This document shows positions 16,927 to 27,555 of a stretch of 35,166 nucleotides of DNA, piece after piece. Made by a program: the position numbers and the translations under genes. The notes beneath the pieces were generated by a model that did no database searches, was not told the DNA's origin, and saw nothing but the letters and a program-made list of their open reading frames with translations. The DNA is from Coriobacteriia bacterium (lineage in GTDB: Bacteria > Actinomycetota > Coriobacteriia > Anaerosomatales > Anaerosomataceae): assembly GCA_030651765.1 (NCBI GenBank), contig JAUSBY010000014.1:1-35166 (forward strand). Direction: 5' to 3'. Every line of letters starts with the position of its first letter. Position 1 is the first letter of the stretch.

Positions 16927-17361
16927 ATGGTCAAGCAGCTGACGGTCTTCCTTGAGAACAGTCCCGGGCGGCTGGCGGGTCTGACGCGTGTGCTTGGTGA
17001 CGCGGGTGTGAACATGCGGGCGCTCATGGTGGCCGACACCGCCGAGTTCGGGGTGGTGAGGATCATCTGCGACCGTCCCGAGACGGCGCGCCGCGCGCTC
17101 GAGTCGGCGGGCTTCGGCGTGAGTGTCACCGAGATCCTCGCCGTCGAGGTGCCGGACCGCCCCGGCGGACTTGCCGACATACTCGAGGCCCTTGGCGCCG
17201 TAGGCATCAATGTCGAGTACGCGTACTGCTACGTCGAGCCGGGCGGGCAGGCCGCGATCGATGTCTTTCGCGTCGAAGAGCCGGGCCGAGCCACATCGGT
17301 GCTGCTCGAGGCCGGGATCCGCGTCCTCGAGCCTGACGACGTCTATCCGGCCGATTCCTGA
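16927..17361 (+). CDS. Double-ACT-domain protein linked to paaK
   Basis: A 144-residue protein made of two tandem ACT domains and nothing else (about 1-68 and 69-144). The first begins VKQLTVFLENSPGRLAGLT and has the typical GVNMRALMV turn; the second begins AVEVPDRPGGLADILEALG. ACT domains bind amino acids or related small molecules and control partner enzymes, so it may sense an aromatic amino acid or aryl acid for the adjoining CoA ligase. It is clearly paralogous to the double-ACT protein after iorB (33540-33974). Only three bases separate it from the paaK stop. Its end overlaps the convergent degenerate-GGDEF gene by 19 bases. Confidence 0.92.
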   Translation: MVKQLTVFLENSPGRLAGLTRVLGDAGVNMRALMVADTAEFGVVRIICDRPETARRALESAGFGVSVTEILAVEVPDRPGGLADILEALGAVGINVEYAYCYVEPGGQAAIDVFRVEEPGRATSVLLEAGIRVLEPDDVYPADS

Positions 17362-18203
17362 GCCTCGGCTTCCTGCGCTGCCGGCTCGCCGTCTGCCGTG
17401 CGCCGTCCGAGCGGTTGCGCGTCCTGGGCGGGTGCCATCTCTCGCGCCAGAGCGGCGAGGCGTCCCGCGTCGCGTGAGCACGCCAGCACCTCGGTCGTGA
17501 TGACCGAGTCGTCGGCGCCGAGCGTGTCGCACGCCAGCGTGTGGAGCCGTGCGGCTGCGACAGTGGCGCCCTCAGGCTCCGTGTTGGGCAGGAGCACTAT
17601 GAACTCGTTCCGACCCCGGAACGCGACATCGTCCACGAGTCGCACGTCGCCTCGTAGGGTGCCTGCGACGTGGCGCATCATCGTCCGATGCCGGGCGGGC
17701 CGCAACCCTTCGTACAGGCTGGGGCCGATACGCACGACCACCAGCGAGAAGGGCGTCTGATACCGCTGCCACGAGGCCAGTGCCGACTCGATCGCTCGCG
17801 CGACGTGCAGCGCGCTGTACGCGCCGGTCGTACGGTCCACCATCGTCGTGTTCTCGAGGCCTGCGAGCACGTACTTGAGCCGGCCGGCCACCTCGCCGCC
17901 GATGATTCCCACCACGGCGTAGGTGACGACCCGGATCGCTATGAGGACGAGCGCGTCGTTCGTCAGGCCCTCGGCGTTGAGCAGCGGCATGCGGAGCGCC
18001 ACGTACAGACCCGTCGCCATGATGGCGGCTACGAACCCACCGTTGCGGCCCCAGTGCAGGGCGCCGGCAAGCACGAGCACGATGAGCAGCTGGGCGACGA
18101 CCTCGGCAGTCTGCGGCGCGACACCCGGGGCGATGAGCATGCTCGACACGACGGCCAACGAGCCGAACGCCATGATGATCGCCTCGAACCACGTGTACTT
18201 CAC
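17343..18203 (-). CDS. Membrane protein with degenerate GGDEF domain
   Basis: A 286-residue protein. The first 120 residues hold about four membrane helices (for example AEVVAQLLIVLVLAGALHWG). After a linker, VDRTTGAYSALHVARAIESA starts a GGDEF-like domain, matching the usual D-x-LTG-x-YN entry. The signature itself, expected as GGDEF or GGEEF, reads RGRNEF, so both glycines and the first acid are altered. The C-terminal 30 residues are Ala/Glu-rich. Active c-di-GMP synthesis is unlikely; GTP or c-di-GMP binding, or a structural role, remain possible. GTG at 18201-18203 follows AGGAGG. It lies 31 bases after the prepilin gene and is probably cotranscribed with it. Confidence 0.75.
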   Translation of the reverse strand: MKYTWFEAIIMAFGSLAVVSSMLIAPGVAPQTAEVVAQLLIVLVLAGALHWGRNGGFVAAIMATGLYVALRMPLLNAEGLTNDALVLIAIRVVTYAVVGIIGGEVAGRLKYVLAGLENTTMVDRTTGAYSALHVARAIESALASWQRYQTPFSLVVVRIGPSLYEGLRPARHRTMMRHVAGTLRGDVRLVDDVAFRGRNEFIVLLPNTEPEGATVAAARLHTLACDTLGADDSVITTEVLACSRDAGRLAALAREMAPAQDAQPLGRRTADGEPAAQEAEAQESAG

Positions 18204-18234
18204 TGGACCTCCTGTAGCGGGTCGTTGCTTACTG

Positions 18235-18579
18235 TCACGGATGATTCGGGCAGGTGACACTGCCGGTTGTCGGGTTGAAGATGTACAGGGTGCCGTCCGA
18301 CGGGCATCGGGATGTCGATTCGAAGTTCCGGACCGATGAGGCCAGACTGTCTATGGTGATCGTCGCTTCCGACGCTGACGAGGCTGCGACCACGACCACG
18401 GCGGCCCGTTCGAGCACGGAGCGGTTATGGTCGCATGCGGCGGCAGCGGCTCGCGCAGAAGCGGGGAGATAGGACGCTACCGCCACCAGAAGCAGGATCG
18501 CGATGATGAGGACGACGGTCATCAGCTCGATCGCCGTGAACCCGGCGTCGCCCCCCGGCGCTCTCCGTCTACCGTTCAC
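18235..18579 (-). CDS. Orphan type IV/II prepilin-like protein
   Basis: A 114-residue protein with a class III signal. A short basic leader (NGRRRAPGGDAG) is followed by FTAIELMTVVLIIAILLLVA, giving cleavage after Gly by prepilin peptidase, a glutamate at mature position 5 and one long hydrophobic helix. The mature part is short and has three cysteines after the helix, at least two of which could form a disulfide (CPSDGTLYI and the terminal TGSVTCPNHP). The C-terminal style resembles minor pseudopilins. No assembly ATPase, peptidase or platform gene is nearby. GTG at 18577-18579 is used, seven bases after GGGGG; the adjoining GTG at 18582 is equally possible. Confidence 0.85.
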   Translation of the reverse strand: MNGRRRAPGGDAGFTAIELMTVVLIIAILLLVAVASYLPASARAAAAACDHNRSVLERAAVVVVAASSASEATITIDSLASSVRNFESTSRCPSDGTLYIFNPTTGSVTCPNHP

Positions 18580-18721
18580 CACCAGACCCCCATCGTTTGG
18601 CCAATACTGCTTCCGCCGACTCCTCGGCACACGCTTGAGGATTATGTCGGCACATGAACCGCACCCCTGAAGCGTACGATACCGCGAGGGTCGGATCGGT
18701 GCATCTCTCACGCACAACCCC

Positions 18722-18727
18722 TACAAT
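18722..18727 (+). promoter_or_regulatory. Possible -10 element for the D,D-carboxypeptidase gene
   Basis: TACAAT lies 40 bases upstream of the GTG start at 18768, in the divergent region between the prepilin gene and the carboxypeptidase gene. The -35 region is poor, so this rests on the -10 and its position. Confidence 0.45.
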
Positions 18728-18767
18728 CGAAAGTGTCTCGACAGACCCCGCCAGGACGGAGTCACGC

Positions 18768-20009
18768 GTGTCCGCACACGCTCGCGCGCAGCGCGCGCTG
18801 GTCTCGTTGTCGCTCGCTCTCGCGCTGCTGGTCGCCCCCCCGGCTTGGGCGTCATCGGTTGAAACCGATCGTATCGGAGGCCTGCCGGTAGCCGGAGACC
18901 CGGCGCTCGCATCGGCAGTCCCCGAGGTGTCGATACCGGCGGGTGTGCTCTGGACGGGCGATGGGCGTCCCCTGTGGGAGCGGGACGCCGATGCGCGGCG
19001 TGCGATGGCGTCGACCACCAAGCTGATGACAGCTCTGGTGGTCCTGGACTCGGCGGATCTCGAAGAGGTCGTGACCGTCTCCCGGCGGGCGGCGAGCGTG
19101 GGAGAAGCCGGTGTCGAGCTCGTCGCCGGTCAGAAGATGACCGTCCGCGAGATGCTCGAGGCGACGCTCGTACGATCGGGCAACGATGCAGCGTTCGCGC
19201 TCGCGGAGCACGTGGCGGGCAGTGTGGAGGCGTTCGTGCAGCGCATGAACGACAAGGCGGCCGAGCTGGGCCTCGACGATACGGCGTTCGCCAACCCGCA
19301 CGGGCTCGACGCCGTCGGGCACTACACCTCGGCATCGGATCTGGCCACGCTTGCGACGGTCGCGATGGCCGACGAGCGGTTCGCAGCGATGGTCACCCAG
19401 CCGCGCGTGAGCGTTCGCGGTACGGGCGGGTCGGTGAAGGTGTACGAGAACTCCAACAAGCTTCTTGACTCGTATGCCGGCGCGACAGGGGTCAAGACAG
19501 GCTGGACGAGCAAGGCCGGCTACTGTGTCGTCGCCTCCGCCGAGCGAGAGGAGATAGGCCTCATCGCCGTGGTACTCGGGGCGGCTTCCGAAGACGACCG
19601 GTTCGAGCAGGCTCGCGCGCTACTCGACTGGGGATTCGACCACTACGCGCTCACACCGGTCTCATCGGCCGAGGAGACAGCGGCACTCGTGTCCGTGACG
19701 GACTATCTGGACCGTACCGTCGCGGCGCGCGTCGCCGAGACCGTAGCGGTCCCGGTGTTCGACCTCGATGGTGACGTGACCTCGCGCATCGACGTGATCG
19801 AGGAGGTCGACGCGCCTGTGGTTGCCGGGCAACGTCTGGGCACGCTCACCGTCGTTCAGGGCGACCGTCTGCTGGCGCAGGTAGCGCTCGTGGCGGCCTC
19901 CGACGTGCCGGCGCCCGATCTGTGGGAGTCCATCGGCATATGGTTCACCCGACTGTGGAGGACGATGTTCGGCGGCGAGCGCGTGGCCGAGCCGGTCTTC
20001 GTGATGTGA
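18768..20009 (+). CDS. Serine-type D-Ala-D-Ala carboxypeptidase (PBP5/DacF family)
   Basis: A 413-residue secreted penicillin-binding protein that trims the terminal D-Ala from peptidoglycan stem peptides. A signal peptide occupies about residues 1-28, with cleavage after Ala-Trp-Ala. The three catalytic motifs are present and well spaced: S82-T-T-K85, S137-G-N139 and K243-T-G245. A C-terminal PBP5-like beta domain (about 310-390) follows, and a late aromatic segment (DLWESIGIWFTRLWRTMF) may anchor it to the membrane as an amphipathic helix. GTG at 18768 has GGAG seven bases upstream; longer in-frame starts would put the signal peptide well inside the protein. gcvT starts 15 bases after its stop, so it may drive the glycine cleavage genes. 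Confidence 0.93.
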   Translation: MSAHARAQRALVSLSLALALLVAPPAWASSVETDRIGGLPVAGDPALASAVPEVSIPAGVLWTGDGRPLWERDADARRAMASTTKLMTALVVLDSADLEEVVTVSRRAASVGEAGVELVAGQKMTVREMLEATLVRSGNDAAFALAEHVAGSVEAFVQRMNDKAAELGLDDTAFANPHGLDAVGHYTSASDLATLATVAMADERFAAMVTQPRVSVRGTGGSVKVYENSNKLLDSYAGATGVKTGWTSKAGYCVVASAEREEIGLIAVVLGAASEDDRFEQARALLDWGFDHYALTPVSSAEETAALVSVTDYLDRTVAARVAETVAVPVFDLDGDVTSRIDVIEEVDAPVVAGQRLGTLTVVQGDRLLAQVALVAASDVPAPDLWESIGIWFTRLWRTMFGGERVAEPVFVM

Positions 20010-25297: not shown

Positions 25298-25606
25298 GTG
25301 ACCGACAAGCACGCGTCCGAGGACGGTCTGCTGAACCTGCAGGAACGCTCGGTCGAAGAACTCCGGAGTCTGCTTGATGAACTGTATGCCGAGGAGCAGA
25401 AGGTCAGTTACCGCCGCAGGGTCCTTCATGGCAAGATCGACATCCTGCGGGCGGAGTTGGTGCGTCGTCTCAAGGAGGACCGGGAGGCCGGGAAGGGTGT
25501 CGTCACAGGTGGCGATATCGAGCGGCTTATCGAGATCCTCGCCAACGACCTGCATGGCGTGTCACGCTTCGATGTGGCCGCAGACGATGACGACTGGGAA
25601 GAGTGA
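25298..25606 (+). CDS. rsiG: RsiG-like c-di-GMP-responsive anti-sigma factor candidate
   Basis: A 102-residue, mainly helical protein. The central helix reads EEQKVSYRRRVLHGKIDILR and carries E33-x3-S37-x2-R40-x3-H44-x3-D48. Streptomyces RsiG (formerly AmfC) binds c-di-GMP through E-x3-S-x2-R-x3-Q-x3-D motifs and then sequesters the sigma factor WhiG; Rubrobacter RsiG has one such motif and works as a homodimer. Here there is one copy, with His in place of Gln. A second helix (GGDIERLIEILANDLHG) and an acidic tail follow. GTG at 25298 is preceded by GGAGGGG; GTG at 25295 is also possible. No sigma factor gene is in the window, so the partner is unknown. The family call is from motif recall, not a search. 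Confidence 0.65.
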   Translation: MTDKHASEDGLLNLQERSVEELRSLLDELYAEEQKVSYRRRVLHGKIDILRAELVRRLKEDREAGKGVVTGGDIERLIEILANDLHGVSRFDVAADDDDWEE

Positions 25607-25650
25607 TAGCTGCGCGGTTGCTGCGCGGTGGTACCGACAAGGAGGCACGT

Positions 25651-25911
25651 GTGCCGGGCATTGCTGACAAGATCAAGGAGTTCCTCGATGAGATCGCGAT
25701 CGATGCGGTCGAGGAGCGGGTCGTCGAGTACGTGATCCGTGAGGTGCACAACGGGCGGAAGCTCAGCGACGCGCTGACCGACCCGTACGTCAAGAACCGG
25801 CTCAGCGAAGAACGCCTGGCCAAGGTGCTCGAGAGCCCAGAGGTCTTCGCTGCGCTCGAGGAGCAGATCGCCCAGTCCTTCAAGACGCGCGAGTTCGGTT
25901 TCCTCGATTAG
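25651..25911 (+). CDS. Hypothetical helical protein, 86 residues
   Basis: A short, mostly helical acidic protein (KIKEFLDEIAIDAVEERVVE, then NGRKLSDALTDPYVKNRLSE and ERLAKVLESPEVFAALEEQI). It has no signal peptide, membrane segment or cysteine. I do not recognise a named family. The order suggests an amphipathic helix that could dimerise or bind a partner protein. GTG at 25651 has AAGGAGG six bases upstream. It lies 44 bases after the RsiG-like gene and 35 bases before the FHA gene, so it is probably cotranscribed with both and may act in the same regulatory circuit. Confidence 0.65.
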   Translation: MPGIADKIKEFLDEIAIDAVEERVVEYVIREVHNGRKLSDALTDPYVKNRLSEERLAKVLESPEVFAALEEQIAQSFKTREFGFLD

Positions 25912-25946
25912 GAAGACCGGGCGTCTTTCGGCAGGAGATGGTGAGA

Positions 25947-26393
25947 ATGGACGTCTGTCCTTCGTGCGAGAGTCCGGTCGCACCGGATGCGACTGCATGT
26001 CCCGAGTGCGGCGCGACGCTTGAAGGAACCACGGCAGCGTTCGACGTCGTCTCCGTGCCGGAGGGACTGCCGGAGACGATCGAGGTCGTGACCTCGGACG
26101 TGCCGGTACTCGTAGTCGGCAAGGGTGCCGAGGTGGGGGAGCGTTTCCATCTCGAGCAGCCGGAACTCACGATCGGCCGCGATCCGGACAGCGACATCTT
26201 CCTCAACGACGTGACCGTGTCTCGCCGGCACTCGCGCCTGCTGGTCGTCGGCTCCGTGGTGACCGTCGAAGATGCCGGGTCGCTCAACGGCACCTACGTC
26301 AATGACATCCTCGTCGATGCGGCGATCCTGCGCGACGGGGACACGCTTCAGATCGGGCGATTCAGGATGGTCTTCCTGAGCGGGGGTGCCTAG
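25947..26393 (+). CDS. garA: Zinc-ribbon FHA protein, GarA/OdhI-like
   Basis: A 148-residue cytoplasmic protein. C4, C7, C18 and C21 form a zinc ribbon. An acidic linker contains GTTAAF (T28, T29), similar to the ETTSVF phospho-site of mycobacterial GarA. The FHA domain (about 53-145) has the phosphothreonine-binding residues R78, S92, H95 and N114 in GRDPDSDIFLNDVTVSRRHS and SLNGTYVN, closely matching GarA. GarA/OdhI controls 2-oxoglutarate dehydrogenase and glutamate enzymes when unphosphorylated. ATG at 25947 is used, nine bases after GGAG; the ATG nine bases earlier sits on the ribosome-binding site. The zinc ribbon is unlike the classic GarA layout. It is followed after two bases by an FtsR-type gene, as in mycobacteria. 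Confidence 0.85.
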   Translation: MDVCPSCESPVAPDATACPECGATLEGTTAAFDVVSVPEGLPETIEVVTSDVPVLVVGKGAEVGERFHLEQPELTIGRDPDSDIFLNDVTVSRRHSRLLVVGSVVTVEDAGSLNGTYVNDILVDAAILRDGDTLQIGRFRMVFLSGGA

Positions 26394-26395
26394 CC

Positions 26396-27106
26396 ATGGC
26401 CCGCCGAACGCGCGAATACCTGACCATCGGCGAAGTGGTCGAGCAGCTCCAGCCGACGTTCCCTGACCTGAGCATATCCAAGGTACGGTTCCTCGAAGAC
26501 GAGCAGCTCATCACCCCCGAGCGGACGGCTGGCGGGTATCGCATGTTCCGCCCGGCCGACGTGCAACGACTGGAACTGGTGCTGCGTCTCCAGAAGGAGC
26601 ATTTCATGCCGCTCGCGGTCATTCGAGAGCGGCTCGAAGACTTCGACAAGGGCAAGTTGCCGCCGGAACTCAAGCCGGCGATCGAGTCCTCGGAGATCCT
26701 CTCGCTGCCGCTGGAGGATGCCGAGACCGTTCCGGTGGATCGGGCGCCGGATATGCTCGGACTGCCATCCGCGTTCATTCGCGAACTGGCATCATTCGGT
26801 ATCGTGACGCTCGTGGCCGGCGAGCGTGGTGACGAACTCCCCGGACCGGATGTCAGGATCGCGCACACGTGTTGGGATCTCAGGCGCTTCGGCATAGAAC
26901 CCCGGCACATGCGCATGTACGAGACGTTCGCTGAGCGCGAGGCTGCGTTCTTCCAGCAGATCCTGATGCCCGCGATGCGACACCGCACTCCCGAGGCGCG
27001 CCAGAAGCTCGTGGAGACGCTCGCCGAGCTCATGCGCCGCACCGGCGAGCTCAAGGAACACATGATGAGACGCGCCGTCTCGCGCACGTTCGAGGATGTC
27101 AACTGA
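26396..27106 (+). CDS. ftsR: FtsR-type MerR-family regulator
   Basis: A 236-residue DNA-binding protein. Its N-terminal MerR helix-turn-helix contains TIGEVVEQLQPTFPDLSISK, VRFLEDEQLITPERTAGGYR and FRPADVQRLELVLRLQKEH. This long MerR form, with the extra PTFPDLSIS insert, is the type seen in Corynebacterium FtsR and mycobacterial Rv1828, both encoded next to garA/odhI. In Corynebacterium it activates ftsZ. The C-terminal part, with EPRHMRMYETFAEREAAFFQ and a basic helix, is the usual partner domain. No cysteine cluster or drug-binding domain is evident. Orthology is supported by length, sequence style and location; the target genes here are inferred only. Confidence 0.85.
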   Translation: MARRTREYLTIGEVVEQLQPTFPDLSISKVRFLEDEQLITPERTAGGYRMFRPADVQRLELVLRLQKEHFMPLAVIRERLEDFDKGKLPPELKPAIESSEILSLPLEDAETVPVDRAPDMLGLPSAFIRELASFGIVTLVAGERGDELPGPDVRIAHTCWDLRRFGIEPRHMRMYETFAEREAAFFQQILMPAMRHRTPEARQKLVETLAELMRRTGELKEHMMRRAVSRTFEDVN

Positions 27107-27111
27107 GCACG

Positions 27112-27555
27112 ATGACCGACGAAGCGCTCGACACCATGGCTGATGACCTGCCGGTATCCGACAAGGTCGCCGGCACGCGGTTCGCGCACCCGAGTGAGAG
27201 GGTCGCGGCGCAGATACTCGACTTCTATCAGATCGCGTGGGAGTACGAGCCCACCACCTTCCCGCTGGAGTGGGACAAGCACGGCAACGTGCTCGCATCG
27301 TTCGCACCCGACTTCTACCTGCCCGAGTTCGAACTGTATATCGAGCTCACAACGATGAGTCAGAAGCTCGTGACCAAGAAGAACCGGAAGGTCCGGCGCC
27401 TGAAAGAGCTCTACCCTGACGTGTCGATCAAGATCCTGTACCAGAAGGACTTCCGGAAGCTTCTCTTCAAGTACGGTATCCCGGTCGCGGAGCGCGAGCA
27501 CAGCGAGGGCGGGGGACTCGAGGCGGCCACCGGCACCCGTGAGGGCGCCTCATGA
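27112..27555 (+). CDS. Conserved protein with PD-(D/E)XK-like core
   Basis: A 147-residue protein. The conserved core reads HPSERVAAQILDFYQIAWEY, then SFAPDFYLPEFELYIELTTM and KNRKVRRLKELYPDVSIKIL. The arrangement of an early acidic residue, P-D-F-Y-L-P and then I-E-L-T with a later lysine-rich helix resembles the PD-(D/E)XK nuclease fold (P-D, then E-x-T). I have seen similar proteins next to hypoxanthine phosphoribosyltransferase genes but know of no tested function. A DNA or RNA nuclease, or a nuclease-fold binding protein, are both possible. The disordered C-terminus (about 20 residues) is Gly/Glu-rich. It overlaps hpt by four bases (ATGA). Confidence 0.6.
   Translation: MTDEALDTMADDLPVSDKVAGTRFAHPSERVAAQILDFYQIAWEYEPTTFPLEWDKHGNVLASFAPDFYLPEFELYIELTTMSQKLVTKKNRKVRRLKELYPDVSIKILYQKDFRKLLFKYGIPVAEREHSEGGGLEAATGTREGAS

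What the first reader, a model, noticed from the sequence alone, without database searches (positions are those of the whole stretch)
25298..25606. Single-motif RsiG-like protein with His replacing the conserved Gln
E33-x3-S37-x2-R40-x3-H44-x3-D48 lies on one predicted helix, matching the c-di-GMP-binding motif of RsiG except for His at the Gln position. RsiG from Rubrobacter has one motif and dimerises, while Streptomyces RsiG has two, so a single motif is what a deep-branching lineage would show. If real, this organism controls a WhiG-type sigma factor by c-di-GMP although it may not form aerial hyphae. The His substitution could alter nucleotide preference. The gene is the first of a regulatory operon that also holds an FHA and an MerR gene.
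Basis: partly seen in the sequence, partly recalled or inferred. Interest (0 to 1): 0.7.

Follow-up and report, generated by a model that had tools for sequence, protein, structure and literature searches.

The report
Single-motif RsiG switch in Coriobacteriia
The gene encodes a small, ordinary member of the known RsiG family of anti-sigma factors that are armed by the messenger c-di-GMP, but it lies in a bacterial order where the switch has not been described, and genome evidence there links it to type IV pilin genes and to a secreted protease-like gene that also carries its own c-di-GMP riboswitch.

Summary
In detail: 25298-25606(+) encodes a 102-aa protein with E33-x3-S37-x2-R40-x3-H44-x3-D48. 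It is a clear RsiG (PF22802, E 9e-19; crystallised Rubrobacter and Streptomyces RsiG are the best PDB matches).
The His is not a novelty: the RsiG paper reports His as common at this position, and Conexibacter RsiG with His binds c-di-GMP and not c-di-AMP. 94 of 95 relatives here have His within the full motif.
The genome is Coriobacteriia, order Anaerosomatales (inferred). RsiG is in 65 of 69 genomes of this order and a WhiG-type sigma in 68 of 69; elsewhere in the class 0 of 179 (one sub-threshold RsiG hit). The order has no flagellar FlhA (0/69).
Of 30 pilA loci read, 29 have a WhiG-type promoter (at most 2 mismatches of 13) just upstream; shuffles give 0.05. I infer an (RsiG)2-(c-di-GMP)2-WhiG switch on type IV pili, as in Rubrobacter.
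Unexpected: in six genomes, including this one, a WhiG-type promoter is followed about 40 nt later by a c-di-GMP-I riboswitch, then a secreted HExxH protein gene facing an LPFTG surface-protein gene: two c-di-GMP sensors in series. Binding and regulation are untested.

The parts
25298..25606 (+). rsiG: single-motif RsiG-type anti-sigma factor, 102 aa
   Evidence: PF22802 9.2e-19; PDB matches 6pfj, 7lq2-7lq4
25394..25441 (+). [quoted passage not shown]
   Evidence: translation; all five residues invariant in a 22-sequence alignment reaching Aquicultor and Solirubrobacterales
25603..25911 (+). conserved small protein of unknown function; longest ORF given, a GTG within it at about 25651 is the likelier start
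   Evidence: no Pfam hit and no meaningful NCBIfam hit; conserved at the same place in most loci of the order and in several Aquicultor-type loci
25938..26393 (+). zinc-ribbon plus FHA protein (OdhI/GarA-like)
   Evidence: PF00498 2e-17; NF041660 118.7 bits, below its 200-bit cut-off; adjacent to single-motif rsiG wherever the contig reaches
26396..27106 (+). ftsR: MerR-type regulator FtsR
   Evidence: NF050798 203.5 bits, cut-off 150

Best explanation
The gene encodes a homodimeric single-motif RsiG. Two copies form an antiparallel coiled coil that holds a c-di-GMP dimer; in that armed form they sequester the WhiG-type sigma factor encoded elsewhere in the genome (G000:C14:72797-73636). When c-di-GMP falls, WhiG is released and transcribes genes from TAAAG-N14/15-GCCGATAA promoters: the pilA gene of the type IV pilus cluster, a second promoter inside that cluster, and a secreted HExxH protein gene whose leader also carries a c-di-GMP-I riboswitch. 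Shown here: family identity, motif, partner sigma with the c-di-GMP-contact residues, co-occurrence across the order, absence of flagellar FlhA, conserved promoters upstream of pilA, riboswitch position. Inferred from solved homologues: dimerisation, c-di-GMP binding, sigma binding. Inferred and weakest: direction of control in the cell and the riboswitch's sign.
For: RsiG: PF22802 9.2e-19, PDB RsiG hits. Partner: NF004935 WhiG equivalog 370.9 bits against a cut-off of 343; 6pfj_A E 5.6e-93, ahead of all FliA; K54, G58, R59 match the c-di-GMP-contacting K57/G61/R62 of Streptomyces and K53/G57/R58 of Rubrobacter WhiG (PMC8325347) and are K, G, R in 27 of 27 sequences read. Co-occurrence: RsiG 65/69 and WhiG 68/69 genomes of the order; 0/179 elsewhere in the class, apart from one sub-cut-off RsiG match. 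Messenger: 11 GGDEF proteins. Targets: 0/69 FlhA; the only exact consensus site in the genome is 60 nt upstream of pilA, between pilC and pilA; 29 of 30 pilA genes have a site with at most 2 mismatches in the 200 nt upstream, mean 0.05 in shuffles, none upstream of rsiG or whiG, and the thirtieth locus has one elsewhere upstream. Across the order 45 exact sites against 3 for the reversed control pattern, and 39 of 45 have the G of TAAAG, which the pattern did not ask for. Precedent: the Rubrobacter switch controls type IV pili.
Against: No binding, structure of the complex or expression was tested. The 30 pilA loci were the ones most similar to this genome's pilA. The genome has 11 GGDEF proteins but which are active is unknown. 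RsiG is missing in 4 genomes of the order (completeness 64-91%) and WhiG in one (73%), which may be assembly gaps. Foldseek on the monomer model found nothing, as expected for one long helix.
Confidence: 0.85

Rival explanations
1. The protein is descended from RsiG but works mainly with its operon partners (FHA protein, FtsR), for example in linking c-di-GMP to cell division or metabolism, with WhiG control secondary or lost.
For: The rsiG-FHA-ftsR gene order is kept in every single-motif locus whose contig reaches that far, across the order, Aquicultor-type and Solirubrobacterales genomes, and the FHA gene in 15 of 15 single-motif loci of a phylum sample against 0 of 15 twin-motif loci.
Against: WhiG and RsiG occur together in the order and are absent together elsewhere in the class; motif and WhiG contact residues are invariant. 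Gene order alone can be inherited without a functional link.
Confidence: 0.1
2. The His substitution changes the ligand, so that the protein senses another nucleotide.
For: The residue at this position stacks on the guanine base in the solved structures.
Against: C. woesei RsiG with the same His binds c-di-GMP and not c-di-AMP (PMC8325347). The guanine-reading R and D are conserved. His is the rule in this clade.
Confidence: 0.03
3. The promoter-like sites upstream of pilA are read by another factor and WhiG has a different, unknown regulon.
For: Assignment rests on a consensus known from other organisms; no expression data.
Against: The genome has only three sigma factors with region 3: the WhiG-like one, a SigB-like one beside an anti-sigma-like gene and the best match, presumably RpoD; the element is the FliA/WhiG consensus; the order has no flagellar FlhA.
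Confidence: 0.08

Closest known systems
Rubrobacter radiotolerans / Conexibacter woesei single-motif RsiG (PMC8325347; PDB 7lq2-7lq4)
   Same: One E-x3-S-x2-R-x3-[Q/H]-x3-D motif on one long helix, short protein, WhiG partner in the genome, type IV pilus genes as likely target; His at the same place in C. woesei.
   Different: Found in Coriobacteriia, order Anaerosomatales; the published set of 135 homologues lists single-motif members only in Rubrobacteria and Thermoleophilia, and its sections read here name no Coriobacteriia. Target promoters here include one followed by a c-di-GMP riboswitch.
Streptomyces RsiG (AmfC; PDB 6pfj, 6pfv)
   Same: Same fold family, motif and sigma partner type.
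   Different: Streptomyces protein has two motifs in one chain and controls sporulation; twin-motif loci are not next to FHA/ftsR.
Clostridioides difficile ZmpI/PPEP-1 and its riboswitch-controlled sortase-anchored substrates (PMC6366702)
   Same: A secreted HExxH-type protein, a sortase-anchored surface protein and type IV pili in one c-di-GMP network with riboswitches.
   Different: No sequence relation detected (no PDB hit for the Anaerosomatales profile); here the protease-like gene is also behind a WhiG-type promoter.

Membership tests
RsiG (PF22802), single-motif type | Match to the RsiG profile over the curated cut-off | tested here: met
   67.3 bits against 27
RsiG (PF22802), single-motif type | E-x3-S-x2-R-x3-[Q/H]-x3-D motif, one copy, no second motif helix | tested here: met
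   [Q/H] as written in PMC8325347
RsiG (PF22802), single-motif type | Motif on one face of one long helix | tested here: met
   Helix 19-64 in the model; 80-degree arc by helical-wheel calculation
RsiG (PF22802), single-motif type | Cognate WhiG encoded in the genome | tested here: met
   NF004935 over cut-off; co-occurrence in the order
RsiG (PF22802), single-motif type | Homodimer that binds a c-di-GMP dimer | not testable with these tools
   Only monomer prediction without ligand is offered
RsiG (PF22802), single-motif type | c-di-GMP-dependent binding and inhibition of WhiG | not testable with these tools
   Needs purified proteins
WhiG-type sigma factor (P0002) | WhiG equivalog model over cut-off; sigma2 residues K, G, R that touch c-di-GMP | tested here: met
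   370.9 against 343 bits; K54, G58, R59
c-di-GMP-I riboswitch (RF01051/RF03167) behind WhiG-type promoters | Covariance-model score over gathering threshold | tested here: met
   53.8 to 63.5 bits in six genomes; RF01051 threshold 35, RF03167 threshold 59
c-di-GMP-I riboswitch (RF01051/RF03167) behind WhiG-type promoters | Ligand-dependent expression platform | tested here: inconclusive
   Six leaders suggest competing pairings with some compensatory changes but no U-run

The most novel reading that the evidence does not exclude
Anaerosomatales read c-di-GMP twice on one transcription unit: once through RsiG-WhiG at the promoter and again through a c-di-GMP-I riboswitch about 40 nt downstream, controlling a secreted HExxH protease-like protein that may act on the LPFTG surface protein encoded convergently beside it. 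Together with WhiG promoters on pilA and MshE-type c-di-GMP motifs in both PilB ATPases, surface attachment in these bacteria would be controlled by c-di-GMP at sigma, RNA and enzyme level.
Probability: 0.55. Interest if true: 0.68.

Novelty: new member of a known kind. Interest (0 to 1): 0.5.

Why it matters
The published survey found single-motif RsiG only in two classes. Finding it, with its sigma and its pilin promoters, throughout Anaerosomatales and absent from the rest of the class fits the idea that pilus control is the older job of this switch and sporulation the later one. The cultured Anaerosomatales are non-motile and carry pili-like appendages, which in one strain appear with ferrihydrite but not with soluble iron (PMC9686372); this switch is a testable candidate for that regulation. 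The stacked promoter-plus-riboswitch arrangement would be a clear case of two unrelated sensors of one messenger acting in series on one gene.

Tried and rejected
His as a novel or ligand-changing feature: rejected from the literature and from relatives. Self-control of the rsiG operon by WhiG: no WhiG-type site in the window with up to 2 mismatches at the one spacing tested, none upstream of rsiG in 30 relatives. Flagella as the target of the sigma: FlhA absent in 69 of 69. Foldseek of the monomer against the PDB gave no meaningful match. Sigma-70 promoter and terminator scan around rsiG found nothing. No Rfam family in the window. The HExxH protein has no meaningful Pfam or PDB match. Reverse-strand promoter-like sites upstream of pilA (3 of 30) lie about 150 nt upstream of pilA, probably within pilC coding sequence, and were set aside.

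Full report
Observation. The ORF at 25298-25606 on the + strand is real and as described: 102 aa, GTG start with a GGAGG element upstream, motif E33-x3-S37-x2-R40-x3-H44-x3-D48. It matches Pfam RsiG at 9.2e-19 and the crystallised RsiG proteins of Streptomyces and Rubrobacter at about 4e-10. NCBIfam has no model that hits it. The model made from 22 relatives is one long helix, 19-64, and a short one, 71-86, with low confidence only at the ends.

Where it comes from. Among named genomes the closest is the MAG UBA2272 (99% over the protein); the next relatives carry the names Coriobacteriia and Anaerosomatales, then Candidatus Aquicultor and Solirubrobacterales. That the window's order is Anaerosomatales is inferred from these names. 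In 248 genomes of the class, RsiG is over the cut-off in 65, all in the window's own order of 69 genomes; one further genome has a sub-cut-off match.

The His. The paper that defined single-motif RsiG says that His frequently replaces Gln in helix alpha1, writes the motif with [Q/H], and measures C. woesei RsiG with His: c-di-GMP is bound, c-di-AMP is not (PMC8325347). Here 30 of 30 loci found with the family profile and 64 of 65 found by similarity have His in the full motif (the second set is biased, because one of the search peptides held the His; the one exception lacks the E, not the His). Gln occurs in other single-motif loci of the phylum, so both forms exist.

The partner. The genome has three sigma factors with region 3. 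One, a 280-aa reading at G000:C14:72797-73636, passes the WhiG equivalog cut-off and aligns best with Streptomyces WhiG from the RsiG complex. The three residues that touch c-di-GMP in both solved complexes are K54, G58 and R59 here, and K, G, R in 27 of 27 sequences that could be read. The sigma is found in 68 of 69 genomes of the order and in none of 179 others of the class at E 1e-30. Eleven GGDEF proteins are present.

What it controls. FliA/WhiG-type sigmas usually serve flagella, but FlhA is absent in all 69 genomes of the order. The FliA/WhiG consensus TAAA-N14-16-GCCGATAW has one exact copy in this genome. It lies 60 nt upstream of pilA, between pilC and pilA, in a type IV pilus cluster with two pilB, pilC, two pilins, a prepilin peptidase, pilM, a pilN-like gene and pilO. 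Thirty pilA loci of the order were then read: 29 have a site with at most 2 mismatches of 13 in the 200 nt before the ATG, mostly at a similar distance; shuffles that keep the dinucleotide make-up on average (first-order Markov) give 0.05; the regions before rsiG and whiG have none. In the thirtieth locus my script had taken a neighbouring pilin as the start; it has a 2-mismatch site further upstream. A second forward site recurs about 1.4-1.5 kb further on in 16 of 30 loci; in this genome a 2-mismatch site (G000:C6:115890-115917) is 63 nt before a gene with a prepilin-like N-terminus, and in another genome an exact site precedes a gene with a similar N-terminus (L129). Over the whole order there are 45 exact sites against 3 for the reversed pattern, and 39 of the 45 carry the G of TAAAG that the pattern left free. 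Rubrobacter shows the same picture with mapped transcription starts.

A second layer. Four of the exact sites in other genomes were followed by unusually long leaders. Rfam finds a c-di-GMP-I aptamer about 37-44 nt after each. The same holds in this genome, at a site with one mismatch (G000:C8:1674-1701), and in a sixth genome. All six lead to a related secreted protein of about 180-215 aa ending in HE[IV][WG]HI[IL]DWRDNG.IDWGE, with an HExxH signature, and in all six an ORF with an LPFTG sorting signal lies convergently beside it (DUF11 domain confirmed in two). All six genomes are in the window's own family. An alignment of the six leaders suggests that the strand before the aptamer can pair with the 3' arm of a downstream GC-rich hairpin, with a few compensatory changes; that could make ligand binding switch the gene off, in line with RsiG, but there is no U-run and six sequences are too few to be sure. 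My literature searches did not find this arrangement; the library is partial.

The operon. Single-motif rsiG is followed by an FHA gene and ftsR in every locus whose contig reaches that far, across the order, Aquicultor-type genomes and Solirubrobacterales. In a phylum sample the 15 single-motif loci read all have the FHA gene (14 of 15 also ftsR, the other a short contig), while in the 15 twin-motif loci neither was detected within about 1.5 kb. This fits the view that the single-motif locus is the older one, and leaves open a functional link with FtsR.

Verdict. An ordinary, well-supported single-motif RsiG in an order where I found no earlier description of it; the His is unremarkable; the likely regulon, type IV pili plus a riboswitch-bearing secreted protein, is the part worth following. 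All regulatory steps are inferred from sequence.

Noticed in passing
L208/L273 (own genome, G000:C8, about 850-1701), L104, L108, L114, L115, L258: WhiG-type promoter, then a c-di-GMP-I riboswitch about 40 nt later, then a secreted HExxH protein convergent with an LPFTG surface-protein gene, in six genomes of the family.
   Followed up: partly
window 25298-27106; loci L005-L099 and L172-L190: Single-motif rsiG is next to FHA and ftsR genes across several lineages, while twin-motif rsiG is not.
   Followed up: partly
L207:11234-12904 and 17128-18801 (own genome, G000:C6): Both PilB ATPases of the pilus cluster carry an MshE-type c-di-GMP-binding motif over the NCBIfam cut-off, so c-di-GMP may also act on pilus extension.
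   Followed up: no
window 25603-25911: Small conserved protein without any family, between rsiG and the FHA gene in the order and in some Aquicultor-type loci but not detected in Solirubrobacterales.
   Followed up: no
window 27112-27555: 147-aa protein kept in the same place across the order with no Pfam or NCBIfam match.
   Followed up: no
L105 (another genome of the family): An exact WhiG-type site lies about 194 nt before a gene whose start resembles a NapC/NirT-type multihaem cytochrome (judged by eye, no family search), a possible link between the sigma and electron transfer.
   Followed up: no
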